From positions 97,099-161,098 of the IMG/VR virus record IMGVR_UViG_3300008954_000002: 64,000 bases of DNA; one strand, 5' to 3'. The translations under genes and the position numbers were made by a program. This document shows positions 23,201 through 63,840 of this stretch, in pieces. The notes under the pieces were generated by a model that was not told the origin of the DNA, did not search any database, and saw only the letters and a list, made by a program, of their open reading frames with translations. Source of the stretch: a virus. Numbering within the stretch: the stretch's first letter is position 1; every line of letters starts with the position of its first letter.

Positions 23201-26123
23201 CATACCTCTCGGATATGCCAGCATCCATACGACCTCTCATTAGTTGTTCTGGCATGTTCTCCGAGTCAAACTCAAACTGTACCTCGTTTGCATTTTGCAA
23301 GAGTAATGCTGCAATACCTTCTTCTGTAAGCTCTAGGTTGGCTAATGCGTGCAGTACTTTCTTGCGTCGATCATCGATATCAGGCGAAGCGGTCGGTACA
23401 GCAATGATCTCTTCTTGTACATAAGGATTAGTTTCACTTACTTCAAAAACCATTGAGGATAGGCCAGGATTCCCTTCCTTTGTTTCGCAAGTAGCCCGAG
23501 TGATACACGAACGCTTACGTAGTGCTGATTGATTACTTTCATTAATCTTGTAATCGGAGTCACTATATGTGCCGAACAATCTAGTAATAAAGTTGTCTGT
23601 ACACAATGCATGCCCATCAAGTACGGGTCTAAATGCACGAGCATTATGCTGTAGCTTCTGACGCATTTCCTCCATAGATCTGCCGGGCAAAGGTATGCCT
23701 GTTAGCTTGTCATCTATTAAGGCAAACTCCATCATGTAGGATGGCTCAGTTGAGCCAAGATGCTGATGCGTAGGAAACTCAGAACCTAGAATTGGAATGC
23801 TGGCAATGTTGTGCCGCATACCGCCTGCAACGCCAATGAGTACAGCACCATCTCTAAGCAGAATCTTTTTAGTATTGAGAGCGCCATACTCTTCAGTGCC
23901 ACTTACATCGGACCAGTCAAGGTCATCATTGCCTGTGAGTATCGACAAGGTAATAGTACGACGCCAAACATTTACTACATCGCTGCGAGCGTCATAGTAC
24001 ATGAAGCCAAGATTTGCTAAGTCTTTGTAATCGTTAAGTATCCCTTCTGCTTCTTCTTGAGTTAACCCTATGCTATCAAGCTGATCCTCGGTTAGCAGAG
24101 TCTCCTCTTGTCCATCTGGCTCTACTACTGTAATAGCTGCTGCTTCTCCAAGCTCTGGATCTGCGGTTGTCGGAGTACTGGTAGTGCTTGAGCTGGGATA
24201 TGGGGCATTCTTCTTGGCAAGCTTTTGATCTTCAGAAGTCATGCCCTGGATTACATCCTGCATATATTGCGTATTAGGAGTTTGCCCATCGCGGGCATTT
24301 AGCCACGGAACAGGATTGAAAGGCATCTCCGACGTATTCTCTTGTAACTCAAAATGTAGGTGAGCCCCGGTTCCATAGGTTCCAGACAAGCCTATGGGTT
24401 GTCCTCTCGTTACTACAGCTCCCTTGTTAACATCCGTCTTAGATAGGTGTCTATACACACTTGTCATATTGAGATCAGAGTGGAGTATATACAAGACGCT
24501 ACCCGTAGCAGAGACTACTGTTCCATCCTCAACTGCATATATAGGTGTTCCCTCTGGGATAGGGATGTCGATCCCTTCGTGAGGTCTTTGCACATGCGCA
24601 GCGGGGTGATCCCAACGCCAAGAGAAATGATCAGATAGTCTAAAAGCATTTGGATCATCGTCAACTAGGCAAGGCCTATGCAGTATTAACTTGTGCATGT
24701 CCTTGCGCCGCCACTGGCTTAGCCGAGTGTGACGACCTTCTCCAGGAGCATAGGTTCTACGTTTATGTTGTCCGCGTATCTCTATAGCAGGCAGAGATGA
24801 GGTAGCGCCAGTTCTTTCTTTGCTTTGAGTTTCAACTGCTGCCTCTTGTAACTTCTTCTGCGCATCGCTGAGCTTGGCAATAATATCTGGGGTAAGGTTG
24901 AGAGTTCTATAATCTTCGTAATGAAAGATAGTTCTCTTCATTGTTGAGAGGAATGTCGACACCCATCGTTGCCTAAGTACTGGAGGTACTCCTCCAGTGT
25001 GAAGTCCAGTCACATATCCGGTAGCCTCGTCCATGGAGGTAAAGGAGGCAACGCTTTTATATAGAAGACCTGCACCTGTAGTAGAGCCACCCGGAAATTC
25101 AAAAATGTCTTGGTAGACATCAATCCCAAAGTTATCATATAAGGACTTTGCCTGTAGCGAGTTAATAAATCTTACATAGATGTTGGATAGGGCGGGCGTC
25201 ACTACCCATGCACTAGCTTGCATCCTGCTTGGGAGTGGTAGCAGATCAAAGACGCGACCAGCATGAGTTCTCTCCATGTCGTGTAGGGTCATAGTCTTTG
25301 AAGAGCTTCGTTCAATAGCTTCAAGAACAACGCTAAATGTTTCACGGGCTGGGTCTTCTTGGCGAGGACCCTCTTCCCCTGCCCTGTATTGGCTTTGGTT
25401 AAAGTTAGAGAAACCCTCTACACCTCTAATGATTGTTGGTAGCCATCCCTTCTCTCTCCCTTCGTCTTCGCTCTTCTCTGTGTACCATGAGTTAGCTTCC
25501 TTTTCATGCCCAACCATACTCTCTATGAAAGGGCCAATCCAAACAGGGATACTATATCTAACTGTATCTGTCACCGCAGACGAAGAGGACCCCTTAGATC
25601 CTGCACTAGGCACTTTTATGCTTTCTGTTGCCCACTCTCTTCTAAAAAGGAAGTTGACAGCATAGGGAGCATAATTAAACCAGCGCAGATCTATCTCGCA
25701 TGCAAAAGTGCCTGGCGTTCCCTTCATAGGAGAGACATTGATAGAAGACATTGTAAAGGCCATTTGCTGCCAGACTTCCCAGCGTGGGACAATAGTCTCA
25801 CGTAGATAGTCGTTCTCAATCCAACAGAAGGGAGAGTGCTTGAACTGGACTATCAGCCTGTGCAGAGACAATAGCATGTCTGGTGTAAAGATAATATTAA
25901 GGCTTACCTGTACAAGCCCATGCCCGCTAGGAACTTTAGTAGAGACTCTTGAGCGTAGGGTGTTCCATTGCCAATACATATCCTCCTTACGAACAGAGAT
26001 CTGAGTAGGCGGAATTACTAGCTCTATGTCGTTGATGGTAAATACAGCATTAGGATCCGATGCGTCTTTACCATCCCGATATTCCCAGCTGCGGTCGGCT
26101 GCGCCTCTAATAATACCTGCCAT
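17235..26123 (-). CDS. Giant baseplate hub protein with M23 peptidase domain (2962 aa)
   Basis: Starts at ATG 26123, sharing TAATG with the upstream stop. Residues about 500-610 form an M23 (LytM-type) zinc endopeptidase: H515 and D519 (PHEGIDIP), then H588 and H590 (AHLHFEL), the standard metal and catalytic set for cleaving peptidoglycan cross-links. Around 1935-1985 a stretch (GYSNDPNMLEVLISG, then FGVELTADIKG) resembles gp27/late-control-D hub domains. Near 2390 and 2640 HPGWIYGPRPYG and NPRIKPWDICYLLDD match the C-terminal hub pattern of large phages. Hydrophobic clusters lie near 2066, 2324 and 2793. T4 keeps hub and lysin in separate proteins; here they are one chain. It probably forms the hub and locally digests the wall during injection. 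Confidence 0.85.
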   Translation of the reverse strand: MAGIIRGAADRSWEYRDGKDASDPNAVFTINDIELVIPPTQISVRKEDMYWQWNTLRSRVSTKVPSGHGLVQVSLNIIFTPDMLLSLHRLIVQFKHSPFCWIENDYLRETIVPRWEVWQQMAFTMSSINVSPMKGTPGTFACEIDLRWFNYAPYAVNFLFRREWATESIKVPSAGSKGSSSSAVTDTVRYSIPVWIGPFIESMVGHEKEANSWYTEKSEDEGREKGWLPTIIRGVEGFSNFNQSQYRAGEEGPRQEDPARETFSVVLEAIERSSSKTMTLHDMERTHAGRVFDLLPLPSRMQASAWVVTPALSNIYVRFINSLQAKSLYDNFGIDVYQDIFEFPGGSTTGAGLLYKSVASFTSMDEATGYVTGLHTGGVPPVLRQRWVSTFLSTMKRTIFHYEDYRTLNLTPDIIAKLSDAQKKLQEAAVETQSKERTGATSSLPAIEIRGQHKRRTYAPGEGRHTRLSQWRRKDMHKLILHRPCLVDDDPNAFRLSDHFSWRWDHPAAHVQRPHEGIDIPIPEGTPIYAVEDGTVVSATGSVLYILHSDLNMTSVYRHLSKTDVNKGAVVTRGQPIGLSGTYGTGAHLHFELQENTSEMPFNPVPWLNARDGQTPNTQYMQDVIQGMTSEDQKLAKKNAPYPSSSTTSTPTTADPELGEAAAITVVEPDGQEETLLTEDQLDSIGLTQEEAEGILNDYKDLANLGFMYYDARSDVVNVWRRTITLSILTGNDDLDWSDVSGTEEYGALNTKKILLRDGAVLIGVAGGMRHNIASIPILGSEFPTHQHLGSTEPSYMMEFALIDDKLTGIPLPGRSMEEMRQKLQHNARAFRPVLDGHALCTDNFITRLFGTYSDSDYKINESNQSALRKRSCITRATCETKEGNPGLSSMVFEVSETNPYVQEEIIAVPTASPDIDDRRKKVLHALANLELTEEGIAALLLQNANEVQFEFDSENMPEQLMRGRMDAGISERYASRVAVFDQDISVTGQDKFYSQLFGETALKQVNMFEAVGAAPFIRADGSDSFMMTEKEIRTSFGDEAFERAKQYQVPGRGADLYDVGNSDAGIRELIQDTEQDAYVINKSIMADYLDRTGGDLTSDIELTTAQLEAAGYIDPVDPLGTPRAALSLGGIDQAHSMAESARIIKDIESRAIKATLVDASFVDVTQFHYANPRLQDVDIEIVRHYHAFLLGLIQEANCLVSEPNVPGAVTEEHFKEQLYNLPNLEQEMWQRFGYWMYAYVKWRYGDWLKADSVGAWLSKNLGAYAPAEIKSLGVNPWSTQAEFKARLDDGLGFGYVGIKHTTSVVMSGPWRGIKRIAFGAIDNTALAVDSAVNFLTPMESRRGDGSQWQQILRRNDKPTMFDHFIGSIDSDGSTDVPFWAGEGTTTIDNNRKEAEADVETVVQLYINDIMPLHDQILMSASDTILAPFKKFIESVEDTSFLGFKGHLAALAWWSLPPRYLQSEGSVEQGNYTYQRTTLPPIKTSIQYEENKIKKIRSGLVDLADRLLSNMPLLSLFGLEELATTDLSGGVANWSGIQCYPDMDLPAHPYYPDRLHATNPDFYMWSIYEDAPGAVSAAIVEDLQDNLAAQINGSYDHLKKMQGSGIRSKDDKGLTTGATAQSPIMSALVHHPTGTDDVDSLTKIGGRWDYLKEAELNPMEVAFWDPDSFVQRSANVEKQIKKLSEQIKNMPRGTKEQEKARDNAKTVLARLKTISTEGGLKPLIPYLSLTDGILGSDQARVDANVYRDLVQKVAKSEAMFGSKAGYLGEYLTDETATNTVDSVEDTRLAAMDTYTHAFDPESLKNLTNDSAHDIISEKLTLRRAYPTFKLMLIEEDELNSRLLNFDDFYTYNGVKEFTVVQSRESAADTATIVLQNVSGSLDGTKREAVVDLDYFDRERAAKIKELNDSTQAHNNVPEVEDGRHQPFSAVVMRPGMNIQLRAGYSNDPNMLEVLISGRVVDVMWNSQGDLCELTVQSFGVELTADIKGRNDGRYGENDEALVFETTHKLLSSMMLQPEVLHFGRWKIGQLFQYGESKDARLDFVDYSEKDFWGWFSFTGKMMKFMKTHPVISTGIAIGIAALSITPMGRAGAAAGASKGIVSRLMGGAAAKIGGGSTWGGFAGKNLAVTAKGINQRIGAAIGMAKGGSRGSVVNKFLHSGGVSSESIRKAGLRPLLTKLAGTTTKAEKTAVFAEIETAFTTLAKSETSRVRGLVLGYSGANLGGLTFFQGAQQIAGSGFNIFGRVLAINSRAFLAATAASIGLQAAADVLGWGYDITIGEVKRNYTRKKASLFLSPQDDNLYPPNPKDYMTLEFEFWEWSTIKRLGAVVAGGFAGALMGVPGTADKVGEWYDAWTQPDKWQTNKQLLPSECLYQVQNSTIWDLFHEMSLRHPGWIYGPRPYGTSLRYTMFFGVPGQRYWSKPATNNFVDRMNTLREHLEDGNINRDIYEKLYGAVALKKIEDAFSFEIKERIDSSSSLPESYVELGESFNPFNPNNIEDISDVDGNFQSYVKKPESYAASASLDHLNLRFTNEVMEEYLKGLENRFVPFRRYHMLRSETDIVSNNIMGSEHNVVNAVSVLYHDRDRLVSKTLPMKASSFIKEPDLNVLPVSFSNVIGKKAAMRYGMSSLMYGLKKMYRGELLVLGNPRIKPWDICYLLDDYNDMFGPIEVEQVVHMFSYETGFLTEIKPNAVVFANEISTWPVLEGLKLYCMAVRDKEQGTGTVGPDGIPRDGGGSSHWWESAVTDPDYKARLAKKYGGIFQEGFDFEEFMSEMLPDDPDITGGFTEGRLPGHNMASLTAALLVGGVTTGLAFGTRGLASAALGKVGISAANGIWSSRIAKAIGIGGTAKGGTWAWNKLDNVFNNLGASWLVAGPILFAKCLQEETVAVVPLTKGGRPIVSGLQQGDPMAIWRNIFGDVTNIIDDTMWGIDDVTREWTAWKDAIWRTPWTGLRANRMTGIPE

Positions 26124-29100
26124 TAGTCACCCATCAGTCTGTCAATATAGTTAGGAGTCAGTGGTCTCCTAGTGTCATTAATTCGTATTGAGCCAGAACC
26201 TCTAATGCCTGCAAGAAAATCCATAGAAGCTCTTACTCCACTAGTAGAGGGTACCTCACCTCTAATTTGATAAGCGTTTTGTCTTGAGAAATAAGTTTCT
26301 CCAGTGTTTACAGGCCTATGCATCATATCATTGTGTGGTCCCCCACCCAAGCTTTCTGGGGTGGGCATGTTGTCTTCTCTTGGTGCAAACAGCTCTCCTC
26401 TTCGTATAGCTGTTGCTACTCCAGAGTCCATTACTTCACCAGCAGACAACATTGGAGTAGGTGAATATCCTTCACTTCCCATAACTCCTTTAAGTGCTAA
26501 AGTAATACCTACACCTGCAGCTACGGGACCAAGGAATCGTTTGTCTAGCTTCTGTGTAGCGCTTGTAATGCGATTAGTGGTTGCAGCTATCTCATCCATG
26601 GTGCCTGCAAGACCAGTAGTAGTCTCAAGGGCAAGTCCTGCTTCCATAGCATGTCTTTGTTCGACCTGAAGAGCAAAGGCTCTCCGTGTTGCAGCTTTCT
26701 CACCTTTGAACATTTGGGCATTCTGATAGGCAGTCCCACTAAATTCTGCACCTGTCTCGTGTACATAGCGCGCAGCCATACGGCCAGACTCAACTAAGGA
26801 GCCAACACTAACCGCTCTGCCTTCTTGCAGCAGTGACTTGTTGAGCTGCTGCATTATTTTGGCTTCTTCTCCGGTACCGCCCAGCCCCCCCAGTTGCTGG
26901 GCTAGCATATCTTTATTGAAGCCAGTAATTCTAAGACCTTCCTTCGTATTTATGGCTGAGCCTTCAAAGATGTCTTCTAGAACTTTCTGGTACTTAAGTG
27001 AGCCTGCTTCAGATCCACCAGTTCGGATCATCTCATTAGTAGCTTCAATAAGATCTCCTGCCATATTTTTATAATGTGCATGGTGTTTGGCTTTGATTGC
27101 TACAATCTCTTCTATAGCAGTAAGACCAGCTAGCCCCTGCTGGGCAGCACTATATCCCATCTCTGCAGAAGTTTGTACTGTCCCCAACCTAAGCTTGTTA
27201 AGCGCCACATCAATTCTGCCAATGTCTTTAGCAGTAGCTTCTTTCATAACCTCATGATAGCGAGCTTCTTGAGGTGAGAGCTCACCTAATGCGCTTACTT
27301 CCATTTGAGCAGTCTTCTTGATAACTTCTGAAGCCTCCTCCATGATAGCGCCTACTTCAGCCCTATACCTAAGGGCTTCATTTGAAAACATCTCTTTTGC
27401 TGCAGAGGATTTCTGGAAGTAACCACTAGTGCCTTTCTTTGCAGAGGGAAAGAACAGCTGATAGTTATCGCCATCAAAGTCACCAATCATTCCAGCAGCA
27501 AAACTAAGGTTTAGCTTTATGCCCTTCTTCCTGTTGTTGTAGTGGACATCTACTTCAAAGTTGGGAATATAAACCTTGCCTCCGCCCTCTGTCGGTGCCA
27601 AAGCACTTATGTTTCTAGCCATGCTCTGGAAGAAGTCACCCATTGCTCCCCCTGCCTTCCGTCTAAGCCCTTTCTCTGTGCCAGGAAGCGCCATCCGTCT
27701 CATCTCTTGGAAGCTAGATGGCCTCCTACCTGTAGCAGCCTCAAACCTAGCAAGAGCAGCTTTACCTTCTGGAGTGCCTCTAGTGAACTTGCCAAACATT
27801 ACATCCGCCCGACCTGTTTCAGGTGCATATCTGAATGTCTGGGCAGGGGCTACATGCCCTGGGCCAAGCACTGGATCTCGACCTAGGATAGTTTCAGTTC
27901 CCTCTGTAAGTCTCGCTTCCATTCCAAGGAAGTAAGACTGGAATCGAGATCCCATTTCTTCCATGGCAGCACCCTTAGCTTTCCCACCTGTCATACCTAC
28001 CGCCTCATAAGAAGCAGTAGCTCCACCCATGTATCCACGCATTGAATCTAGAAAGCGTTGTGTATCGGCAAAAACCGCACTGCCACTAGAGCGCTTAAAA
28101 GCAAGCTGGGTCCGTGACAACTGTGCCTTGGTAAGCTCAGTGGTTGGAAATTCACCTGCTATCTGAAGACTAGCACCCAACCCATAGGAAGAGCCTCTAA
28201 GCTTTCCTCTTAGGACACTATTGTAAGTATTCCCAAATAGCTCACTAATGCCTGCCTTCCATTCGCGCAGTAAGTCGGCGTTTGCACCCGCGTCCACAGA
28301 CTGCCTAATGGTATTCAAGTTGTCGGATAGAAGATGTATCTTTCGTGTGTACTCCCCATGTATTGGCTTTGGTCCCTCAGCAGTTTTAATTTCAACACCC
28401 CTCATAAGTGCCATAGTGTTACCGCCAGCAATTCTAATTTGTCGAGTTCCAAGTGCAGCTTCTGCAGCTCTTCCTGTCTTATCTCTTACTCCACCAAGGT
28501 CAAGTATAAAGCCTTCCTTATGCTGTGCAAGCAATTCGGTCATGGCTCGTGTATCACGCGATCCTTCGAGAAAGGCGTCTACGCCTATAGTAGTAAGCTT
28601 TTGGGATGCTTTATATCCAGCAACTACTCCCTCTCGTCCACTAAGCGTGAGCTGCATCTTGGAAAGATCCTGAACAATCTTCAAGTGTTCAGCTGCTCCT
28701 CTTTTACGAGCAAGAACCATAGCCATAAAGTCGTTGGCCTCATTAGCGGGCATTCCGAGATTAGCTACTTGATGCTGAAGGAACTGGTAATAGCGCGGCT
28801 CTATAGAAGACTCTGCTGATCGAAGTATCTGAGAAAGTGGACCTGGAGTAATAGTATCAGCACCAAGAGCTGTTCCTCTCTTAGCTGATGCGATAATTTT
28901 CCCAGCAAGAGGCCCTGCTTCTCCTTTGATAAGGTTAGCCACTGCTGTCTGTGCTTCACCCTTTGCACCAAACCCATATAAGTCTGCGTGCTTGTAAAGC
29001 CCAGCCATAACCATGCCCATCTGCCCGGTTCTTGCTTCTGCATTAGGCAGTGCAAGCATTTTCTTCAAGGTAAGGCTTGCCATGTTCTCAAGATAAGCCC

Positions 29101-31390: not shown

Positions 31391-31405
31391 AAGTTACTCC
31401 AATGA

Positions 31406-34400
31406 TTACATAGCTCTAGCGAGTAAACTTAGTATATCTGATTCTCTTGAATCATTATAGTGCAGTTGGGCTTGAGTCTGCCCACCCCAATAGCCATGCA
31501 CACTCATATCTCTAGAGCCTCGCTGGTGCTCAGACCTAGGCAAGTTATACATAAGCTCTCCTATGGAGTCTCTATGAAGGGGATGATCTTGGTAGAGGAA
31601 ATCAGTTGAGCCTTCTAGGTAGGGCTTGCGAGCGAGCATTCTCACATCCCTTTGCCAGCCACCATACTCATGAACATCTCTACCAAGATCATCCGTATAT
31701 TTGATCTTGATATCTCTTAAATCTACATCTGCATTATGCCCTATCCAGTCTTCGGAAGGCAAAGGCTTATCATAGAAATATCCTTGCAGCTCATTAAAAC
31801 GACTCGCTAAGTAAGCTTCATTAACCTGTGTTGCAGAGCCTGCATGCAACCCAGGATCGCCCCTATCCATTCTTTCCCATACTGTCTGATAGAGGTGGGC
31901 CTGATCCGTAGGAACCATTTCAAGGATTCTTTGCCTATCTTCTCCCTGTGCAAAAGTGAATGCATCATAAAACTTCTTTTCTCCCTCTGGCATTGCTGCA
32001 TAGATGCCAAGCGGATTACCTTGAGGGTTGACACCAAAGCGAGTTTGCTGAGCCCTATAAAGGGCCTGACGCTTCTCATTGCCCTGAGACTTTTGAGCAA
32101 TTGTCATCCACTTCATAAACTCTAGCTTGTCAAAATACTCATCGGTCTGACGCGTCTCTTCTACATGACCGGGGATTCCCCTATAGCCCATAAGATTAGC
32201 AGCCTGATAAGCAGCTGGCCTAAACCAGTCACGTACTGGCTTGTCCCAAAACGCCATATTCGTGCCGTACAAATTTGTCCTTTCATATTCCTCTATAGCG
32301 TCTCTATTCCCCATCAGCTTAGACATAGGTCTAAAGCCGAAAGGCATCATATACTCAGCGGGTTCAACAATAGCTCTAAGCGATCTTTGTCCAACATGCC
32401 AAGCAGCTTGTGTAGCTTCAGAAAGCAGTGGAACTTCAATTGCGTTATCATGAGTTGGTAAGAAACCGTCACCGATTAGCTTCTTATTAAGTCTTGTATC
32501 AATAAGATCAATGAAGTCGTTTGTATTCCTGCCTGTCAATCCAGCGGCACGAGCTTTATATATCTGAGCTCTTGTGGTTCTAAACTCAGGTGACCAATCT
32601 GCCACATCAGCTAGGATGGCATATCGATAAGCTATTGGATACTTTTCAGGATCAACTCCACGCAGCTCTGGATGTATAGCTTGGTACCCAGCCCCAGGCA
32701 ATCTTACATCAGCATCAGGAATAGTTCTGTACGGATCACCCATCTTGTACCTTTGGGGCAACCATGAAGGCATGGTATTTAAGATAGGATTATATTCGTC
32801 AACCTCTGGTCTTATTCTAGGCAGAAAGCGCCTTGCAAGCTCTGAGGTAAAGAAGGCACCCCCCAAGTCCATACCCCAGAAGGCCTCTCTAAGATCGGTA
32901 ATGGAACTTGCACTAGACAATACAGAGCGCTGACTGAAGAATGTCTCTGAGCCAGTCAGCTTCTTTGTTATCACATTGGAAAGAAATCCTGTTAATCCTT
33001 CCATCTCTCTAAAGCGATAACTTGATGCACCTGCTACAAAGCCAGGCGTATATGGGGACATTGGCTTGCCTGGCGTTAGCCCGCCAAGCTCATAGTTAGG
33101 ACCCTTATACTCAGGGGCATGAGCGAACTCTAACTGGTCTCCTTGGCCTGTACGAACCCAGTCTGGGACATGCATGAGTTTGGGCGGCTTAATAACTCGT
33201 CCAATAGTTGCCGCTAGAGCAGGCCCAATCATTGGGACGTCTTCAAATGCACTACCCGTAATTGTATGGGGCCTATTCCAATAGTTTCTTCTCTCAAGCT
33301 CATAAGTAAAGTTCTTTCGTAAGAACTTCCCAAGAGGACTAATGCTGTCTTCATCCTCTCCCCAGCGTGCTCTCTCTGAAGCCCTGCTTCTCCAAAGAGC
33401 AAACCGGTGAGGTCTCATATACTTTGTTTCACCTCCCTCAATATCTCCACCACCACCTTCCCAGAACCGACTTGCTCTTACTTCAATCTGTTGCTTCCCA
33501 GAGTATATGTCCATGAGATCGCTGGGGTTCTCTAGGCTGCCAATACCACCAGTAGTAAGCAATCTGTGAGCTGCTGCGCCGGCGGCAAACAATACTCCTA
33601 AGCGACCGATACGAGGCTTAAATCCAGTCTCCTCAAAAAGTCTTGTAAGATACTCTTGACCTACAAGCTCCTTGCTTAAATTTGCTCCAAAGAACCCGTG
33701 CATGGCACGGCTGCTAAATGATTCTGCGACTCTCGCTGCTCTAGCTACAAAACCTGTCCTTCCAGAATAGTGTTTGTCTATCCGTTTTAACGATTGCTGT
33801 AGGGAAGCATTGAGTGGGTTATTTTCAAGAAAGGCTTTATCTTGTGCAGTAGCTCCACTTCGTTCAAGCTGGAGCCTATCCATAAGAGCACCCCATCGCC
33901 CTTGTTCTTTGGCAGACTTCTGCATAGCAAAGAACAGCCGATTTCTTCTAACTGTTTTGGGTAGCTTGCCCTCCATGATTTGATTAGCTTTTTCTGCAGA
34001 GACATAGCCTTCATTAATTGCTACATTATGGACACTGCTCCAATACCTATCTCTAGCAGAGAGGCCAACAATTCCAGCACCCTTGACACTGCTTGCTTCT
34101 AGTGCAGCCTTTTGGAAACCAATCCTGCCATCAAGAATTCCACTTAGTCGGAAGGGTTCCTGTCCATACCTTTCAACAAGATGTGCAGGCAAACCTAAAT
34201 ACCCAGCAGCAGCCAATGATAAGCCGGCAAAGGCACTAGTCTTCCAATCGGTTATCCCTGGGGCAAAACCCTCCAGTGTCCTTCGGTATATATTAAGCCC
34301 AGTAAATTTCCCAACGGCAGCTAGACCTACTTGGCCAGTTGCCCAAGTATCAGCAATACCTTGTCCAGTACCCTTGTCAAAACCAGGCAATAGCATTTGC

Positions 34401-53591: not shown

Positions 53592-53600
53592 AGATAGTTC

Positions 53601-54550: not shown

Positions 54551-54558
54551 AGTTGTGC

Positions 54559-55224: not shown

Positions 55225-55227
55225 TGT

Positions 55228-57498
55228 CTACCTCTTTTTACCAATGTTGCCTCTACCACGAGAGCGTACTCTAGGACCAACACGATGTGGCTTAGACATA
55301 CTTTTTACCTCATTGATACCCTCTAAGTCCATCTCATGACCTCTAGTATGATTAGAATGAGAAGCAAGTCCTTCGAATATACTCTGGTGTGCATCTGGTT
55401 CTCTAGTACGTCCTATATCTCCTCTACTCTTGCGGAAGTGTTTTCCAGACAAGGTTTCTTCCGCCTGATACTTTTGCTTAACAAGCCTATCTACTTCGGG
55501 ACCCTCTCCTCTGACTATCTGCAATACACTAGGAAATCCAGGGAGACCTCTTGCCCTAGCTTCGTTAAACATTTCTTTTGCTTCTGCTTTGGGAGACATA
55601 TAAGAACCTTCTCCTGAAGACTTATTGATAAACTTTGGTCTGGAAATGGGAAGTTGATTACCACTATATACTGACACCTCAAGAGATAGTCCTGCAAGTG
55701 CCAACATTAATGCATCTAGTCTATGATCGCCAACACGAACATTCTCTGGACCATACACAGGCTTTCCTGTAGTAGGCGCTGTTCTTAGGATAACATAATT
55801 CATTAGTTGTTTAGTTAGGTCCTCATCGCTCTCAGGATATACGATAAGTTCATCTTGAAGAATCCTAACAGCATTCTCAACAAGGTAGTGCTTGCCCGCT
55901 TTCTTGATAATAGTTCCATCAATAGGATCTCTCAGTTCAATTGTCTTTGAAAAGTTAAAGGCTACTAAGCGATCAGAAAGCCTCACAGATTGTTCTTCTA
56001 TCTCGTTTCTATTTTCTTTTCTCTTCAGTCTATGAGCATAGAGAAGTAAGTCTTCGATGATTGTGTGACCATAACCTTCATCAGCATAGATCCAATCAGG
56101 CTTCCACTTGTGGTTGAGCCGTACCACTTCTTCCATCCAGCGTTTAGCTGAGAATTTAGAAGCTGGAATATTAATTGCCTCTCTACCATACCACTTGCCT
56201 GTAGAAGTAGAATAAGAGAGTACATAGAACTCAGTACCTGCATTCTTGTTCCAATCAATACCTATACAGGTAAGCATATTGGCTGGCTCAGTGACACCTA
56301 GTGATGTTCTTAGGAACTCTTGGCTGGCTGTTTGGTCATAGGTATAGTCTGCCCGAGCTGCATGTATCCATGAAGGACGAAAGACTCCATAGTTACCCTC
56401 AACGAACTGAGCCATGTACTCAGCCTCAAAACCCTCCTCAGTAGTTTCAGATTCTATCTCTTCTTTTACGCTATCCCAATGAGGAAGTACCGTAGATGGG
56501 TAATAATCTTCTTTGAAATCCGCACGCTCTAGTGCGTAGTTGTAGAATTTGCCTCGCTTCCCGATAGGAGTTGAAGTGGCCATCAGCACCACGCCTGGCC
56601 TTGTGAGCAAGATTGGTGTAATAACTTTATCCAGAATATCATCTGGGATCATATCCATTTCATCGAGATAGATAATGTCTGCTGAGCCGCCTCGAATTGT
56701 ACCACCACCCGAACCATCAGACTTGACTCCAAGCCCAGACACGAATCCCTTAATTGAAGTACCGCTTTTTAGTTCCATCTTATAGGTGGGAGTTTTAATG
56801 TACAGACTATCTCCTGTACCAGTGGTAACCTCTCTTCTAAGTTCAACGTTTCTCTTGATGAAGGCCTCCATTTCATCAAAGATAACAGTTAGTTGAGATT
56901 GATAAGGTGTAATGATTAAGATCTCAGGACCATGACTTACAGGGTTGCCTTCTGCGTCTAAACCACGGCTTACTTTCAGGTTGAAAGCATAGTAAACAAG
57001 CCTCAATGCCATTATAAAAGATTTCCCAGAGCGCCTCCCCCACCTGCATACATTTCTAAGACTAGTGCAACGCAGCAGTTCCTTTTGATAATTTCGTATG
57101 CGCCAGTTCTCATCGCTATCATCAAAACCAAACATCAGCTCTGCCCAAGCTACAGGATCGACTGTAGAGAGAAGAAGCTTTCTTGCTCTATCATAAGGAA
57201 TGTCATTAGCAGCACTAAGACGCTTTATCTTTTCCTTGGAGCCATTAGGTAATCCTCTGGGGATAAAGTTGCAGCTTACCTTAAAGGCACTTTCATTTTT
57301 CTTAGTTCTTTTATATTTCTCTATCTGTCGTATCTGACAATTGATACAAGTTCTATGGACATCAGTTTTTATTCCATACTCTTCTTTATAGTGTTCAGCA
57401 AGAGCAGGATCGGGTTTCGCAGCAGGGTCCTGATGTGTATATCCATACTCATTAGTAGTATAGAGTTCACTAAGTAACTCTTTGATAGTGGGACTCAT
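55228..57498 (-). CDS. terL: Terminase large subunit (756 aa)
   Basis: Starts at ATG 57498 with AGG at seven bases. The packaging motor and nuclease carries Walker A GRRSGKS at 154-160, Walker B IIYLDE at 275-280, the coupling motif ATSTPIGK near 307-314, and RuvC-like nuclease acids D415 (GIDWNKNAG), D473 (YADEGYG) and D591/D595 (GDHRLDALM). An N-terminal extension of about 110 residues bears C51-x2-C54 and C76, perhaps a zinc site. The C-terminus is strongly basic. It sits between two Gly-rich genes, with a TerS candidate two genes upstream. Confidence 0.93.
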   Translation of the reverse strand: MSPTIKELLSELYTTNEYGYTHQDPAAKPDPALAEHYKEEYGIKTDVHRTCINCQIRQIEKYKRTKKNESAFKVSCNFIPRGLPNGSKEKIKRLSAANDIPYDRARKLLLSTVDPVAWAELMFGFDDSDENWRIRNYQKELLRCTSLRNVCRWGRRSGKSFIMALRLVYYAFNLKVSRGLDAEGNPVSHGPEILIITPYQSQLTVIFDEMEAFIKRNVELRREVTTGTGDSLYIKTPTYKMELKSGTSIKGFVSGLGVKSDGSGGGTIRGGSADIIYLDEMDMIPDDILDKVITPILLTRPGVVLMATSTPIGKRGKFYNYALERADFKEDYYPSTVLPHWDSVKEEIESETTEEGFEAEYMAQFVEGNYGVFRPSWIHAARADYTYDQTASQEFLRTSLGVTEPANMLTCIGIDWNKNAGTEFYVLSYSTSTGKWYGREAINIPASKFSAKRWMEEVVRLNHKWKPDWIYADEGYGHTIIEDLLLYAHRLKRKENRNEIEEQSVRLSDRLVAFNFSKTIELRDPIDGTIIKKAGKHYLVENAVRILQDELIVYPESDEDLTKQLMNYVILRTAPTTGKPVYGPENVRVGDHRLDALMLALAGLSLEVSVYSGNQLPISRPKFINKSSGEGSYMSPKAEAKEMFNEARARGLPGFPSVLQIVRGEGPEVDRLVKQKYQAEETLSGKHFRKSRGDIGRTREPDAHQSIFEGLASHSNHTRGHEMDLEGINEVKSMSKPHRVGPRVRSRGRGNIGKKR

Positions 57499-57500
57499 GC

Positions 57501-58382: not shown

Positions 58383-58384
58383 GC

Positions 58385-61300
58385 CTACATCCTGTGGTGA
58401 CCAATCGGGCTGTTAAACATCTGATGGTTCTGGTGCCTTTGACCAGCAGCCATCTTGCTTCTAAGATTTCTTCTACGTACCCCATACATTTCATATGCTT
58501 CTAACTTGCGCTTACCCCACATACTGTTGGTAGTGCTAAGCTGATCCAATGACATAGATTTATCATAGTTGCCATACCCAGTGCCACTACTTAGCTTTCT
58601 GTCATAAGTGCTACCATGAGTCGATGTAAGTGAACCAGTGTCTTGAAGTAACTGTTCCATGTAGGTTGTGTGTGGGGCTTTTGGCGCATAGTGCATAGGC
58701 ATTGAACTTCTAGCATCGTCACTAAAGCCAAGCTTGCCTATTCTTGCTCCAATCTCTGCAGCAGCTATGCTATCTGCAGTGCTATAGAAACCCTGTGCTT
58801 GTGCGTTCATCATCAGTGCGCCACCTGACATGGTGGCGCTATTCTTTACTAGTTTATTTGTATTGGCAAAGGTTGCCCACGTAATTCTGCTACCAGCTGC
58901 ATCGGTAACATCATAAGCAGCTTGGAAGAAAGGCTCAGACCACATACCTGCTTGAGCACCATGGGCAGTCTTCTCAATTCTACCAAGAGAATGGTAATCA
59001 ATCATTGGCTCAGTACCCTTCTTATAGAAAGGAAGTGCCCCAGCCATACCACGCCTAACTAACTCAAAGTTAAGGTTCTGCCCATCACCAATGACGGCAC
59101 CTACCATACGGCCATAGGTTACATTCGTAGGATCAAAGACAAGATCAAGCTTACCTGTCTTGCCTATCATGGCTTCTAAAGCTACTCTTGCAGCCTCGCC
59201 CTTAGGCTGGCTTTGCATAGAGGAGCCCTTAAGATTAAATATACCATTGCCGTGTACTATTTCAGGAGCATCAATACCTGCAAGGCGGAAGCTGAATCCC
59301 CTGTTGGCCCCAAAGAAACTTGCTATTGCACCACGTATACCACCCCGCTGAACAACAATAGTGTCAGCATCTTCTACTTTTACCTTCCAGTTTCCTTCAG
59401 ACAAACTTACTTTCTGGAGACCAGCTCCCTGTAACCCTGCATAGTTGGATGGATCTGCTCTTTGAACATCTTGTGTCAAGAAGGAATGTCCCGACGTATT
59501 GACCCCAAGCGAAGGCCATATCTGTTGCACCTTACCAAAGAGACCATTCACAGGATCGTAATGCTTAGCACCAAAAGAAGAACGCAAGTATTTCTCCCTT
59601 GCATCTAGAAGCTCTTGTTGCTCAAACACATGACTAGAATATACAGGCCCTCTATAAGGAGATCCAAAATCAGTAAATGCTCTCTTGCCCATAGCTGCGA
59701 TACCAGTAGGAGACATCCCTGCTCGCTTTGTCTTCCTAGGATCTCTAGTTCCGTAAAACTCTCCTTGTCCCTCAAGCCATACTTGGTAGTTCATGGTGCG
59801 GAGAGATTCAGGACCTCCTCGCTGATGTCTTGGACCATTCTTAATAACATCCATAACGCCAAGCGCACCCATTCCTGCAGCAAAGGCTGCTAGTGTTCTT
59901 CCCCCACTAGGAATCTTAGCCAATCGCTCAGTCATACTGCTTGTTCTACCTAGCCCTACCCTCTTTAGAGCAGAGGGGAGCTTGGGCAGCTCATGCATAC
60001 CATGCTGTCCTAAAAACTTAGTTATAGCTTTATCGTCTTGTGTGAGTATCTGCTTAATATAGTTATGCTCTAGATCTCTTCCGTGCCGGCTTAGATATTG
60101 GGCACTTAGGTTCTGCAGCGCATCGGCGCTTGCGACCTCCACACCATGCGCCCCCTCTCTAAGTCCTCCGCCTTTAGAAAGAGCATCAATCATAGACCTT
60201 GATACATCATCTATGTCTGTGTGCGTATATCTGCCAGAAGCTTTTATATCTTCTACTATATCTGCAATATCATAGATGGGTCTGGTTTGTGCTGCTTGCC
60301 TTGTTACATGCTCTGTCTCGCCTGCTCTAGACACAAGCTCTAGTGGAACAGCTTTGCGCACACCAGTTGTGCGGTGTGCTACCCCTTCTGTTGCAAGATC
60401 CTGAAAGGCTCTATCAAGTTGCTGGATAACCTGAGCCTTCTCTCCCTGCTTGTATAAGATATCTTGTAGAGCTTGGTACCTTACTTCCTTGGCTAGTGGC
60501 CCCGTGCCACCCTTCTCATACATGCGAATGAGTGCTCTACCATGCTCAGTACCTTCTGCTATATGCTGCAGATCTGCAGTTCTGGCAACAGCATTTCTTA
60601 AGATAGAGGCCTCTGTAATGGCATCTTCTAAAGACCTGTGCCATTCTCTTGCTCCAAAAGCCTTTGCTGCTGCACGGCCCTCTAGTTCTGTAGCCCCAAA
60701 AAGCCTAGCAGCAATATCCATTGAGGACCCATATCTGCCAGCAGGCATAGTAGACAAGCCTAGCTCTACTGCATATGACTGTCGTGCCTTTAATACATCG
60801 ATTATATCTCGTACATCGCCTGCACCCGTATGCTTTAGATATGCTTTCCAGACAGGCTTCCAATCCCCAGTAACACTTGCTTCTGCTCTAGCTGCTATTG
60901 CTTCAGGCCCAGTGACGTAAGTAGGAGCAGACGATAAGGGATTTCTCCACGGCAAAGCGGCTAGCATAGGGTGGGTTTGCCTTACCTTACGTATGGCTTG
61001 TTTCTCATTCATTCCCTCGGCAACAAGCTTGTCTATTAGGGGCTGCTGTTCAGCAGAGATGTGAGCCCCAATCTGAGCCGCTTCAAAATTGGCATTAGCT
61101 ATCCATGTAACATTCTGGCTCATCTTTTTAACTAGTTCAGAATCGGCAGAGAGTACACGCTCTAAAGTAGTGAGTTCAGTCTTGTAGCTTGCTAGTTTAG
61201 AACCAAAGGCCTGTAAGTCTAAGATACGCTGTTCTCTACTTACTCCCGGCGTCCCTCGGTTAAGCATATCTCCAAGAGGACCTTCTGGAGTAGTAAGCTG

Positions 61301-61723
61301 GTCATAGATCCACTTATCTTTCTGCTTGATACTCTCTAACGCCCCGGCAAGCCTACCCTCAGGCACATCCTTGAAAGCTCTCCTTAGCTGTTCAGCTGCT
61401 TCCTTGCCTCTACCGCCTGTAGTAGAGCCCTTAAGCATAAGTGCTTTAGCTACAACAACATCATCCCATGTAGCTGCCTTTCCTAGGAACTTAAGCCCAG
61501 GGTGGAATACGTGCTTGTCTGTAGCAGTGCTAGAAAGCTGTGTAAGATCTTGAGCCCTGTTACTCTTGCCCAAGATCATATTGGGAGCTATCTTCCACTC
61601 AGTAGCTTCCTGTGTAGCTAAGCTATACAGGGCCATCTCTACGGTACCAGAACCCTCTCTAAGCCCTAGGGTCTCAATATCAAGAATTAATGCATTCTGT
61701 AGTAACGAATGGTGTGAAGGCAT
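58385..61723 (-). CDS. DEDDh exonuclease plus SNase-like nuclease fusion (1112 aa)
   Basis: Starts at ATG 61723 (weak Shine-Dalgarno). The N-terminus has the DEDDh exonuclease set: Exo I D15/E17 (ILDIETLG), Exo II ANANFEAAQI with E214 where Asp is normal, Exo III H362/D367 (EWHRSLEDA); the wide spacing implies inserted helices. Residues about 775-925 are a staphylococcal-nuclease fold: D787, R813, D818, E821 (RLAGIDAPE) and R872 (YGRMVGA), equivalent to D21, R35, D40, E43 and R87. The middle has a hydrophobic stretch near residue 607. The Arg/Glu/Arg catalytic set is intact. Two nucleases in one late protein beside the terminase suggest processing of packaged DNA or ejection against host DNA. 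Confidence 0.8.
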   Translation of the reverse strand: MPSHHSLLQNALILDIETLGLREGSGTVEMALYSLATQEATEWKIAPNMILGKSNRAQDLTQLSSTATDKHVFHPGLKFLGKAATWDDVVVAKALMLKGSTTGGRGKEAAEQLRRAFKDVPEGRLAGALESIKQKDKWIYDQLTTPEGPLGDMLNRGTPGVSREQRILDLQAFGSKLASYKTELTTLERVLSADSELVKKMSQNVTWIANANFEAAQIGAHISAEQQPLIDKLVAEGMNEKQAIRKVRQTHPMLAALPWRNPLSSAPTYVTGPEAIAARAEASVTGDWKPVWKAYLKHTGAGDVRDIIDVLKARQSYAVELGLSTMPAGRYGSSMDIAARLFGATELEGRAAAKAFGAREWHRSLEDAITEASILRNAVARTADLQHIAEGTEHGRALIRMYEKGGTGPLAKEVRYQALQDILYKQGEKAQVIQQLDRAFQDLATEGVAHRTTGVRKAVPLELVSRAGETEHVTRQAAQTRPIYDIADIVEDIKASGRYTHTDIDDVSRSMIDALSKGGGLREGAHGVEVASADALQNLSAQYLSRHGRDLEHNYIKQILTQDDKAITKFLGQHGMHELPKLPSALKRVGLGRTSSMTERLAKIPSGGRTLAAFAAGMGALGVMDVIKNGPRHQRGGPESLRTMNYQVWLEGQGEFYGTRDPRKTKRAGMSPTGIAAMGKRAFTDFGSPYRGPVYSSHVFEQQELLDAREKYLRSSFGAKHYDPVNGLFGKVQQIWPSLGVNTSGHSFLTQDVQRADPSNYAGLQGAGLQKVSLSEGNWKVKVEDADTIVVQRGGIRGAIASFFGANRGFSFRLAGIDAPEIVHGNGIFNLKGSSMQSQPKGEAARVALEAMIGKTGKLDLVFDPTNVTYGRMVGAVIGDGQNLNFELVRRGMAGALPFYKKGTEPMIDYHSLGRIEKTAHGAQAGMWSEPFFQAAYDVTDAAGSRITWATFANTNKLVKNSATMSGGALMMNAQAQGFYSTADSIAAAEIGARIGKLGFSDDARSSMPMHYAPKAPHTTYMEQLLQDTGSLTSTHGSTYDRKLSSGTGYGNYDKSMSLDQLSTTNSMWGKRKLEAYEMYGVRRRNLRSKMAAGQRHQNHQMFNSPIGHHRM

Positions 61724-61728
61724 CTGCT

Positions 61729-62508: not shown

Positions 62509-62547
62509 AGCCAATAGAAGTAAAAGTAAGGGGTAATGGGCCGCTGT

Positions 62548-62811: not shown

Positions 62812-62884
62812 TCTAAGCCTTTAGAAAAGAAAGCAGTAGGTGGCCGGCTATATAGAGACTAAAATTAGTTGGAAAATATTTCTC

Positions 62885-62914
62885 ATAATACAAATTATAC
62901 ACTCTTGGTTTCAA
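62885..62914 (-). promoter_or_regulatory. Candidate sigma70-type promoter for the late run
   Basis: On the minus strand TTGAAA (62914-62909), an 18-bp spacer and TATTAT (62890-62885) lie about 75 bp upstream of the first late ATG. A better TATAAT (62899-62894) lies in the spacer but only 9 bp from TTGAAA. The match is reasonable but unproven. A phage-coded sigma factor or polymerase could use other signals. Confidence 0.35.
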
Positions 62915-63035
62915 GGCCGGATCATAAATAGGAATAGCCGCGTCATATTCAGCTTCTAAGCAGGGGGTAGAGTTCTCTTAGGGAATAGGGCTGGGGAAAC
63001 TTGGGCGCGAGCTTGAGAGATGAATAAGAGACAAA

Positions 63036-63140
63036 ATATATAGGAAGGTTGGGGGCGACACATCACACCCCTATAGGGAACAGTAGTACATATAGGAGAT
63101 GTGGGCCAGCATACGTATTTAGACAAGATATATAGGAGAT
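63036..63140. repeat. Three ATATAGG-type direct repeats in the strand-switch region
   Basis: TATATAGGAAGG (63037), CATATAGGAGATGTGGG (63089) and TATATAGGAGATTGTGGG (63129) recur 52 and 40 bp apart. The last two share ATATAGGAGAT followed by a G-rich run. None precedes a gene at ribosome-site spacing. They may be regulator sites or phage-specific promoter elements. Confidence 0.6.
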
Positions 63141-63207
63141 TGTGGGGTGGTTATAGTTAATAGTAGATCGGAACCTATTGTTCGGAGCCTACCGGGGTAA
63201 AGTATGC

Positions 63208-63244
63208 TTTTTTATTTTAATGGTGTTCAATGGAGGACACCATT
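63208..63244 (+). promoter_or_regulatory. Leader block 1: T-rich tract, AATGG and 8-bp hairpin
   Basis: TTTTTTATTTTAATGG, then AATGGTGT (63219-63226), a 10-base loop and ACACCATT (63237-63244), a perfect 8-bp stem. It ends 18 bases before the ATG of the 27-aa gene. The same T-tract/AATGG plus hairpin layout recurs three more times downstream. Confidence 0.7.
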
Positions 63245-63262
63245 ACCCGTCAAGGAGGCGGT

Positions 63263-63346
63263 ATGTACTATAGGTACTATGGAGCCATCCAACTCCTCAG
63301 GCTTAGTGCCTGGGGAGTTGTGGTGATCACCCTGCTTGTTGTGTGA
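63263..63346 (+). CDS. Tiny membrane protein (27 aa)
   Basis: ATG at 63263 with an excellent AAGGAGG site seven bases upstream. The product begins MYYRYYGAIQ and ends in a hydrophobic helix (WGVVVITLLVV), a single membrane segment. The stop codon lies inside the loop of a 13-bp hairpin. Tiny membrane proteins of this sort are typical of early phage regions. Function unknown; coding is supported by the ribosome site, location and the layout repeated in the next two genes. Confidence 0.6.
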   Translation: MYYRYYGAIQLLRLSAWGVVVITLLVV

Positions 63347-63360
63347 GCAACAAGCAGGGT
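63329..63360 (+). terminator. 13-bp perfect hairpin spanning the stop of the 27-aa gene
   Basis: ACCCTGCTTGTTG (63329-63341) pairs perfectly with CAACAAGCAGGGT (63348-63360) around a 6-base loop holding the TGA. It lacks a T tract of its own and precedes the second hairpin, so it may stabilise the transcript or help terminate together with it. Confidence 0.6.
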
Positions 63361-63362
63361 TT

Positions 63363-63406
63363 GAGAGGAGGCTTAGTCGTAAGGCTAGGTCTCCTCTCTT
63401 TTTTAA
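63363..63406 (+). terminator. Intrinsic terminator after the 27-aa gene
   Basis: GAGAGGAG pairs with CTCCTCTC, with inner pairing possible (CTTA/TAAG), followed directly by TTTTTT. The T tract merges into the next repeated leader block. Confidence 0.8.
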
Positions 63407-63437
63407 TGGCTAGCATACGTGTGAGATGTATGCGACC
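63399..63437 (+). promoter_or_regulatory. Leader block 2 with 6-bp hairpin
   Basis: TTTTTTAATGGCTAGCATAC, then a 9-base loop and GTATGC (63428-63433), followed by GACCA. Block 3 shares the pattern GG(C/T)TAGCAT, a spacer and TGCGACCA, and its stem differs by compensating or G-U changes, so the hairpin is probably functional. Confidence 0.65.
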
Positions 63438-63466
63438 AAGACTCTTATTCCTGTGGAGGTAATACT

Positions 63467-63637
63467 ATGGGACTATATGAGTACTTTCTCTCCAAGGTGG
63501 AGGAGATGAGGGCGTCGGCCCTCCCTCCCCTCGGGGAGAGCCCCTCCAGTGAGGAACTGGAGGAGCTCACCTTTGAGGCCCTAGAGGTCACAGAGGTGAG
63601 CGCGCGGACACTTGTCGAAGTGGAGGAGCTTCGGTAG
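63467..63637 (+). CDS. Small acidic protein (56 aa)
   Basis: ATG at 63467 with GGAGG at good spacing. Glu-rich and helical (SEELEELTFEALEV) with a more G+C-rich codon make-up than the late genes. It is flanked by leader block 2 and a strong terminator, so it is its own transcription cassette. Acidic mini-proteins often target host DNA-binding or enzymatic factors; no specific role is claimed. Confidence 0.65.
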   Translation: MGLYEYFLSKVEEMRASALPPLGESPSSEELEELTFEALEVTEVSARTLVEVEELR

Positions 63638-63648
63638 GTGTCCGCATT

Positions 63649-63690
63649 GGGGAGGACAGGTCTTAGGGCTTGTCCTCCCCTTTTTATTTC
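63649..63690 (+). terminator. Intrinsic terminator after the 56-aa gene
   Basis: GGGGAGGACA pairs perfectly with TGTCCTCCCC over a 12-base loop, followed by TTTTTATTTC. A clear Rho-independent terminator whose T tract begins leader block 3. Confidence 0.88.
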
Positions 63691-63724
63691 AGTGGTTAGC
63701 ATGTACCTGATGTATATGCGACCA
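63681..63724 (+). promoter_or_regulatory. Leader block 3 with 7-bp hairpin
   Basis: TTTTTATTTCAGTGG, then GCATGTA (63699-63705), a 7-base loop and TATATGC (63713-63719), which pair as seven bases with one G-U, followed by GACCA. Same plan as block 2 with changed but compatible stem bases. Confidence 0.65.
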
Positions 63725-63744
63725 TTAACAATAAGGAGAATACC

Positions 63745-63840
63745 ATGACTATGGCAATCTTCTGCCTGTTCACATACGTGAACCTGGCAGTTGGATTCTC
63801 TCTTGGCGCGGTGATCGTCAAGAGAGATCTCGTAGGATAA
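63745..63840 (+). CDS. Tiny membrane protein (31 aa)
   Basis: ATG at 63745 with AAGGAG seven bases upstream. The product is mostly one hydrophobic helix (MAIFCLFTYVNLAVGFSLG, then AVIVK) with a short charged end, so a single-span membrane protein is likely. It has its own leader block and terminator. Function unknown. Confidence 0.6.
   Translation: MTMAIFCLFTYVNLAVGFSLGAVIVKRDLVG

What the first reader, a model, noticed from the sequence alone, without database searches (positions are those of the whole stretch)
26123..63840. Working model: ejected polymerase and nucleases plus hairpin-led early genes
If the 1755-aa protein is a polymerase and the 1112-aa protein enters the cell, the phage could start early transcription without host RNAP while destroying host DNA. 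The early-like cassettes with hairpin leaders would be the targets. Each part is visible separately; the link is inference.
Basis: inference. Interest (0 to 1): 0.7.

Follow-up and report, generated by a model that had tools for sequence, protein, structure and literature searches.

The report
Tail-carried phage RNA polymerase candidate, hairpin-led genes
This uncultured phage appears to carry an RNA polymerase in its tail and to encode a second one whose gene sits among tiny early genes, each headed by the same short DNA signal and usually a hairpin, so it may start its own transcription on entry; similar two-polymerase programmes are known, but not in this phage lineage as far as the papers searched show.

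Summary
The parts are real. The 1755-aa protein (26123-31390, -) has an RNA-polymerase-type GDFDGD motif, invariant in three relatives only 28-35% identical, and is the only six-frame match to the beta' barrel profile PF00623 in the 161-kb record (E 0.0037, below cut-off). It lies between a 1387-aa tail protein and the baseplate hub, a slot called 'tape measure' in Bacillus phage 0305phi8-36. The same slot carries DxDxD in KLEB27-3 (PF00623, E 7e-5) and ME3, but not in Moorella phage MTATph1. The 1112-aa protein has an intact staphylococcal-nuclease domain plus a DEDDh-like N-terminus. Outside the window I found a second polymerase gene (936/952 aa, QDE-1/YonO type, GDDDGD) in the early region. 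It and seven small cassettes share a leader (TTTTATTTTAATGG, usually after a terminator) followed by a hairpin; the leader recurs in three relatives. Best reading: a two-polymerase programme like that of Thermus phage P23-45, in which a tail-carried enzyme reads hairpin-led pre-early genes, including the second polymerase gene. Not shown: polymerase activity (both AlphaFold models failed), ejection of either protein, promoter function of the leader, or host DNA destruction. N4-type hairpin promoters are not supported.

The parts
26123..31390 (-). 1755-aa slot protein, candidate virion RNA polymerase
   Evidence: relatives L021, L022, L023; same-slot proteins of ME3 and KLEB27-3
27434..27529 (-). 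stretch matching PF00623 (RNA_pol_Rpb1_2, profile 124-155), residues 1288-1319
   Evidence: only six-frame match in the 161-kb record, E 0.0037, below curated cut-off
27467..27481 (-). DFDGD motif, residues 1304-1308
31406..35569 (-). 1387-aa neighbour, conserved tail protein (tape-measure candidate by position)
   Evidence: blastp and tblastn to ME3 gp35, MTATph1 CDS0026, KLEB27-3 gp31/gp33
17235..26123 (-). 2962-aa baseplate-hub homologue with M23 peptidase domain, closes the slot on the other side
39467..41551 (-). tail sheath protein (contractile-tailed phage)
   Evidence: phrog_16991 E 3e-43
55228..57498 (-). large terminase; links the phage to ME3, MTATph1, KLEB27-3
58385..61723 (-). 1112-aa nuclease protein
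60611..61681 (-). N-terminal DEDDh-like exonuclease region: DIET 15-18, NANFE 210-214, H362 and D367
   Evidence: D15, E17, H362, D367 and NANFE invariant in 3 of 3; DIET and NANFE also in a fourth homologue; no profile match
58934..59290 (-). staphylococcal-nuclease domain, residues 812-930 by Pfam
   Evidence: PF00565 E 3.2e-13; D787, R813, D818, E821, R872 invariant in 3 of 3
63210..63223 (+). class I leader motif, site 1 (TTTTATTTTAATGG)
63222..63241 (+). leader hairpin 1
63263..63346 (+). 27-aa ORF, cassette 1, with Shine-Dalgarno
63363..63398 (+). intrinsic-terminator-like stem before site 2
63399..63409 (+). class I leader motif, site 2 (TTTTTTAATGG, short form)
63408..63437 (+). leader hairpin 2
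63467..63637 (+). 56-aa ORF, cassette 2
63649..63680 (+). terminator-like stem before site 3
63682..63695 (+). class I leader motif, site 3 (TTTTATTTCAGTGG)
63694..63723 (+). leader hairpin 3
63745..63840 (+). 31-aa ORF, cassette 3
63847..63882 (+). terminator-like stem before site 4
63882..63895 (+). class I leader motif, site 4; the same bases are bases 1-14 of the record through the 119-base terminal repeat
63894..63907 (+). leader hairpin 4

Best explanation
The phage most likely runs a two-polymerase programme. The 1755-aa protein is a single-chain two-barrel (DPBB) RNA polymerase carried in the tail and delivered with the DNA. It starts transcription at an AT-rich leader (TTTTATTTTAATGG) that usually directly follows the terminator of the preceding unit, so each pre-early gene is a short separate transcript beginning with a hairpin. 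One of these units encodes a second, non-virion polymerase of QDE-1/YonO type (936 aa from ATG at record base 1897), which would then read other early genes. The 1112-aa exonuclease plus staphylococcal-nuclease protein may be delivered too and act on DNA at entry. Shown: the ORFs, motifs, domain matches, gene order, leader repeats and hairpin tendency. Inferred: polymerase activity, presence in virions, ejection, leader as promoter, and the nuclease's target.
For: GDFDGD invariant in 3 of 3 family members at 28-35% identity. PF00623 rings once in the whole record, on this motif (E 0.0037), and once in KLEB27-3, on the protein in the same slot (E 7e-5). Gene order 1387-family / slot / hub is shared with ME3, KLEB27-3 and MTATph1; the slot motif lies at 74-79% of the length in the 4 proteins computed. 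hhalign of the slot family against the second-polymerase family aligns in register on the motif, as its best match (score 29.6 against 23.5 or less for the nine other proteins compared; pairwise P 0.037). Second polymerase: PF05183 E 0.0013-0.0024 with GDDDGD; homologues with D-x-D-G-D in G006 and L028. G006 has both polymerases and class I leaders. Leader far above chance: 3 vs 0.09, 5 vs 0.04, 10 vs 0.01; no sigma70-like site on the + strand near it. Precedent: P23-45 gp96 and gp64 (PMC10770324, abstract and whole Results read).
Against: Both AlphaFold models failed (pLDDT 42.1 and 49.5) and Foldseek gave no polymerase barrel. No Pfam match for any of the three family members at E up to 10; PF00623 does not ring in G003 or G006. 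The second barrel was not found by profile (PF00562, 0 of 5 records). The MTATph1 slot proteins have no DxDxD. DxD[GQ]D arises in 53, 380 and 269 of 5000 shuffles of the window, KLEB27-3 and ME3 slot proteins. TTTTTATTT also ends terminators that have no class I leader, so only the AATGG-plus-hairpin part is specific. In L028, 8 of 18 sites lack an anchored stem. No mass-spectrometry, RNA or host data. Mitigation: P23-45, with two proven polymerases, also fails to ring with PF00623 and PF05183.
Confidence: 0.55

Rival explanations
1. The 1755-aa protein is only a tail (tape-measure or pilot) protein; DFDGD is a chance or metal-binding motif, and early genes are read by host RNA polymerase from unusual promoters.
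For: No significant profile or fold match; the MTATph1 slot lacks the motif; chance of the motif 53 of 5000 shuffles; a hydrophobic N-terminal segment fits a tail or pilot protein.
Against: Motif kept with its GMIG flank in 3 of 3 divergent relatives, present in 2 further slot lineages at a similar place, and the sole PF00623 match in two phages. sigma70 scores at 7 of 8 leaders are 7 or less, like random segments.
Confidence: 0.22
2. The second (936-aa) polymerase is the only phage polymerase and the class I leader is its own promoter; host polymerase makes the first transcript.
For: Its gene is the better-matched polymerase (PF05183), it lies among the class I units, and L028, where only this gene was found, has 18 leader matches. 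PMC2147016 proposed phage-specific promoters for the comparable gp99 of 0305phi8-36 (passages).
Against: Its own gene is under the same leader, which needs a starter enzyme; no sigma70-like promoter above background was seen on the + strand near the leaders in G000. L028 is a 17-kb stretch of a 25-kb contig, so a slot protein may be missing only from the assembly.
Confidence: 0.2
3. The leader is not a promoter: it is a terminator tail plus a 5' RNA element (a stabilising hairpin or a cleavage site) within read-through transcripts.
For: Terminator-like stems directly precede 7 of 8 G000 sites, TTTTTATTT is shared with other terminators, and hairpins are a common way to protect 5' ends (recalled).
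Against: The sequence beyond the T-run (TTTTAATGG) is conserved and sits at the head of separate units, most with their own terminator; strong terminators between genes argue for a fresh start at each.
Confidence: 0.2
4. N4-type system: a virion polymerase recognises the extruded DNA hairpin itself.
For: A hairpin at each early unit of the window's phage and a virion polymerase candidate.
Against: N4 promoter hairpins lie at about -11 with a 3-base loop and conserved loop bases (PMC4496689, passages); here loops vary from about 3 to 9 bases, stems share little sequence and the AT-rich part lies upstream. No T7-type polymerase profile in the record (PF00940; none of its 14 control genomes rang, so weak). 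The candidate is of DxDxD type.
Confidence: 0.05

Closest known systems
Thermus phage P23-45 gp96 (tape-measure-fused virion RNAP) and gp64 (non-virion RNAP), PMC10770324
   Same: A DFDGD polymerase in the tape-measure position, a second single-chain polymerase encoded among pre-early genes, and an AT-rich motif upstream of those genes.
   Different: P23-45 is a siphovirus with the RNAP at the N-terminus of a 5002-aa tape measure (DFDGD at 779); here a myovirus with the motif at residue 1304 of 1755 in a separate tail gene. No detectable sequence similarity. Hairpins just after the motif are a feature found here; I did not see them described in the parts of that paper I read.
Bacillus phage 0305phi8-36 (orf99 polymerase, orf146 tape measure), PMC2147016
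   Same: Gene order chaperonin / large tail protein / slot protein / hub, a Pfam05183-type polymerase gene on its own short transcript, and a host-takeover region of short units.
   Different: Its orf146 slot protein is called tape measure, not polymerase, in the passages read. Its record was not in the collections, so its motif could not be tested.
Acinetobacter phage vB_AbaM_ME3, Bacillus phage vB_BauM_KLEB27-3, Moorella phage MTATph1
   Same: Homologous terminase, 1387-aa family and hub; slot protein with DHDQD (ME3) or DYDGD (KLEB27-3); SNase in the ME3 hub; exonuclease domain in the MTATph1 slot protein.
   Different: Slot proteins are not alignable with the window's; MTATph1 has no DxDxD there and its slot gene is followed by an IS21-like gene pair (label by eye).
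phi14:2 gp66 (crAss-like virion RNAP), YonO, QDE-1
   Same: Single-chain two-barrel polymerases with DxDxD.
   Different: No sequence match to the 1755-aa protein; the comparison rests on the motif and on passages of PMC10770324 and PMC7824862.
Coliphage N4 virion RNAP
   Same: A giant polymerase ejected from the virion to read early genes that carry hairpins.
   Different: T7-type enzyme; promoter hairpin with 3-base loop and conserved loop bases (PMC4496689 passages).

Membership tests
two-barrel (DPBB) RNA polymerase: 1755-aa protein | metal-binding DxDxD in DPBB-A | tested here: met
   GDFDGD, 3 of 3 relatives; PF00623 E 0.0037, below cut-off
two-barrel (DPBB) RNA polymerase: 1755-aa protein | second barrel with two basic residues | tested here: inconclusive
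   no PF00562 match in 5 records; an invariant LRGKLRGS stretch at 1060-1067 is a candidate by eye only
two-barrel (DPBB) RNA polymerase: 1755-aa protein | DPBB fold | tested here: inconclusive
   AlphaFold pLDDT 42.1 and 49.5 on 3-sequence alignments; Foldseek without polymerase-barrel match
two-barrel (DPBB) RNA polymerase: 1755-aa protein | RNA synthesis | not testable with these tools
   needs purified protein
tape-measure-slot virion RNAP (P23-45 gp96 kind) | polymerase motif in the tape-measure gene position | tested here: met
   gene order in the window's phage and three named phages, motif in the slot of three of these four; slot assigned as tape measure in 0305phi8-36 (PMC2147016 section 10)
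tape-measure-slot virion RNAP (P23-45 gp96 kind) | RNAP at the N-terminus of a much longer tape measure | tested here: not met
   motif at 74-79% of the length in 4 slot proteins; so it is filed as works-like, not as a member
tape-measure-slot virion RNAP (P23-45 gp96 kind) | present in virions | not testable with these tools
   no proteomics; KLEB27-3 gp34 is labelled structural protein in its record
QDE-1/YonO-type RNAP: 936/952-aa protein outside the window | PF05183 profile with DxDGD | tested here: inconclusive
   E 0.0024 and 0.0013, below cut-off; GDDDGD; in the control set B. subtilis also rings below cut-off
staphylococcal nuclease: 1112-aa protein | SNase domain with catalytic D, R, D, E, R | tested here: met
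   the residue roles are recalled
DEDDh exonuclease: 1112-aa N-terminus | DxE, NxxF(D/E), HxxxxD motifs | tested here: inconclusive
   motifs invariant in 3 of 3, with E where D is usual in the second (motif definition recalled); no Pfam match and no hhalign match to the MTATph1 exonuclease
N4-type hairpin promoter | short hairpin near -11 with 3-base loop and conserved loop bases | tested here: not met
   leader hairpins have variable stems and loops; definition from PMC4496689 passages

The most novel reading that the evidence does not exclude
In the 0305phi8-36-like lineage of long-tailed myoviruses, the gene so far called tape measure is in fact a tail-carried RNA polymerase, placed next to the true tape measure (the 1387-aa family), and it starts infection by reading terminator-coupled, hairpin-led units that include a second phage polymerase. 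This would be a two-polymerase entry programme like that of P23-45, reached in an apparently unrelated phage, with a nuclease cargo beside it.
Probability: 0.4. Interest if true: 0.78.

Novelty: new variant of a known kind. Interest (0 to 1): 0.62.

Why it matters
If true, tail-borne polymerases are wider than the phages where they are proven, a large family of unannotated giant tail proteins gains a function, and the first minutes of infection in this lineage do not depend on host transcription. It also gives a short leader that can be used to find pre-early genes in uncultured phages, and a testable reinterpretation of which 0305phi8-36 gene is the tape measure.

Tried and rejected
AlphaFold on residues 640-1640 and 1150-1440 with three sequences: both poor; Foldseek on both gave no significant match (best E 0.2 and 0.078). 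Several Mycobacterium RNAP complexes appear among the weak matches, but as chain F and at E 1.8 or more, so I do not use them.

PDB, Pfam, PHROGs and NCBIfam with the 1755-aa protein, alone or as a profile: nothing useful. tblastn of the 1755-aa protein, its L014 relative and the second polymerase in 50,697 phage records: none. Scan of viral contigs with the 1755-aa protein alone: no relative. Scan of GTDB genomes with alignment A1: no relative. A third viral scan for this family, with a three-row alignment, gave the same three loci.

PF05183, PF00940, PF00623 and PF00562 searches. In some searches nothing rang in the controls, so those negatives say little. At the default limit one search reported no PF05183 match in G000, while, with a looser limit, reported the E 0.00129 match.

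hhalign between slot proteins of different phages and P23-45 gp96: no significant match. hhalign of the 1112-aa N-terminus to the MTATph1 exonuclease: none. N4-type promoters and host sigma70 promoters were considered and put lower. Searches for papers on KLEB27-3 and on SNase in virions found none.

Rows and choices to know: L022, L029, L001, L004 and L027 were left out of counts as (near-)copies of L021, L028 or the window's phage. One G006 leader hit (L030:8908) is doubtful but was kept in the 33. The first leader fold run used a regular expression that missed two G000 sites; one search replaced it. The regular expression was fitted to G000 and then applied to the others, within chosen stretches of each.


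Full report
What the window is. The window is bases 97099-161098 of a 161,098-base virus record. The first 119 bases of the record repeat the last 119 of the window, so the record closes on itself and the window's right end continues at record base 120. The window holds the structural operon on the minus strand: sheath, capsid, portal, terminase, baseplate J. The terminase matches four records from three phages: Moorella phage MTATph1, Acinetobacter phage ME3 and Bacillus phage KLEB27-3. The ME3 record notes homology of several of its proteins to Bacillus phage 0305phi8-36.

The 1755-aa protein. It has no match in Pfam, PHROGs or PDB sequences, and only a meaningless weak one in NCBIfam. Its one DxDxD is GMIGDFDGD, the DFDGD being residues 1304-1308. 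Three viral contigs hold relatives (L021 and L022 identical over 25 kb, and L023), 28-35% identical and co-linear; the motif and its GMIG flank are invariant. A six-frame search of the whole record with PF00623, the beta' barrel that carries DxDxD in cellular RNA polymerases, rings once, here, at E 0.0037 (below the curated cut-off), and in KLEB27-3 rings once, on the protein in the same gene slot, at E 7e-5. It does not ring in G003 or G006.

The slot. In the window the order is two small ORFs, the 1387-aa protein, the 1755-aa protein, and the 2962-aa hub with an M23 peptidase. ME3 gp35-36-37, KLEB27-3 gp31/33-34-35 and MTATph1 CDS0026-27-32 have the same order; the flanking proteins are homologous (E down to 1e-39 with the window's), the slot proteins are not alignable with it. 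Yet ME3 gp36 has DHDQD and KLEB27-3 gp34 has DYDGD, at 76% and 79% of their length, against 74% and 76% in the window and G003. MTATph1 has no DxDxD in the slot gene, which is followed by an IS21-like gene pair (label by eye); it has an exonuclease domain instead (RNase_T, E 5e-5). [quoted passage not shown] The 1387-aa family sits directly after the chaperonin-position genes and could be the true tape measure; that is inference.

Fold tests. AlphaFold on residues 640-1640 and 1150-1440 gave mean pLDDT 42.1 and 49.5 and no polymerase barrel by Foldseek. The fold is therefore untested rather than refuted. P23-45, which has two proven polymerases, is also missed by PF00623 and PF05183.

A second polymerase. 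At record bases 1849-4707 (936 aa from the ATG with Shine-Dalgarno at 1897) lies a protein with GLMGDDDGDMVIVDWD and a weak PF05183 (RdRP, QDE-1/YonO family) match, E 0.0024 and 0.0013. Relatives with D-x-D-G-D occur in G006 (29%) and L028/L029 (31%). G006 also holds a relative of the 1755-aa protein. 0305phi8-36 gp99 is a described polymerase of this type on its own short transcript (PMC2147016 passages; PMC7824862 passages).

The hairpin-led cassettes. Eight units run across the junction: sites at window 63210, 63399, 63682 and 63882 and record 1221, 1458, 1805 and 4758. Each has a leader of the form TTTTATTTTAATGG, with a terminator-like stem just before it in 7 of 8, a hairpin that starts at the GG (8 of 8), and in most a Shine-Dalgarno and a short ORF (the unit at the junction has a long leader, with a 195-aa ORF at record 573). 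The 1805 unit is the second polymerase. With up to 2 mismatches only five other places in the record match; by a stricter pattern 3 matches were found against 0.09 expected in the window and 5 against 0.04 in the first 20 kb. The leader recurs upstream of the polymerase gene in L028 (10 against 0.01 expected; 18 by the looser expression), in G002 (3) and in G006 (4, one doubtful). Over all 33 sites mean folding z is -1.52 (93 controls -0.47) and 25 stems start at base 1-2 against 14.4 expected (38 of 93 in the controls); in L028 only 10 of 18 do. Sigma70-like scores upstream of the leaders are 6-9, like random segments; TTTTTATTT alone also ends other terminators.

The nuclease. The 1112-aa protein has a strong SNase domain with all five catalytic positions kept in 3 of 3 homologues, and N-terminal DIET, NANFE and H-x4-D motifs. 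SNase domains also sit in the ME3 hub (E 4.7e-14) and, very weakly, in the KLEB27-3 hub (E 0.15), and an exonuclease in the MTATph1 slot protein. Nuclease domains thus recur in large virion-type proteins of this lineage. That they are ejected or attack host DNA is not shown.

How it most likely works. By analogy with P23-45, where the tape-measure-fused polymerase reads pre-early genes including the gene of the second polymerase (PMC10770324, abstract and Results read in full), the tail-carried 1755-aa enzyme would read the class I units, and the 936-aa enzyme would take over, perhaps at the second leader class (ATAAATAAATA plus hairpin).

Novelty. I saw no paper that names a virion polymerase in the 0305phi8-36 lineage; this rests on searches of an open-licence library only. 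Papers: PMC10770324 abstract, all Results and passages; PMC2147016 section 10 and passages; PMC7824862 and PMC4496689 passages; all others as search listings.

Noticed in passing
L006:5301, 7596, 9051, 14338 (+); L029:17720, 18617: A second leader class, ATAAATAAATA, in several cases followed by a GC-rich hairpin (some with a TTAC loop), downstream of the class I units; a candidate promoter for the second polymerase.
   Followed up: partly
G000:1-119 and window 63882-64000: 119-base direct terminal repeat: the record appears complete or circularly closed.
   Followed up: yes
L006:10714 (+): Perfect TTGACA-18-TATAAT in a non-coding stretch after the early units, in contrast to the class I region.
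   Followed up: no
L007:12139-13413 (+): 424-aa protein with a sub-threshold tubulin/FtsZ match (PF00091, E 4e-5), reminiscent of phage tubulins.
   Followed up: no
L008:2437-4209 (+): 590-aa protein with Lon substrate-binding and AAA ATPase domains.
   Followed up: no
L009:8049-9662 (+): DNA polymerase III alpha fragment ending in an intein-splicing-domain match; the polymerase gene looks intein-split.
   Followed up: no
window 58385-61723 (-), C-terminus: The last residues (QMFNSPIGHHRM) are nearly unchanged in 3 of 4 homologues and partly kept in the fourth, in a family as low as 35% identical overall; a possible packaging or targeting tail.
   Followed up: no
L018:34538-36780: IS21-like transposase and ATPase gene pair (label by eye) directly after the slot gene of Moorella phage MTATph1.
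   Followed up: no
L019:32012-32647: Small ORF with a homing-endonuclease look between KLEB27-3 gp31 and gp33, which together match one protein in relatives (likely an intron or insertion).
   Followed up: no
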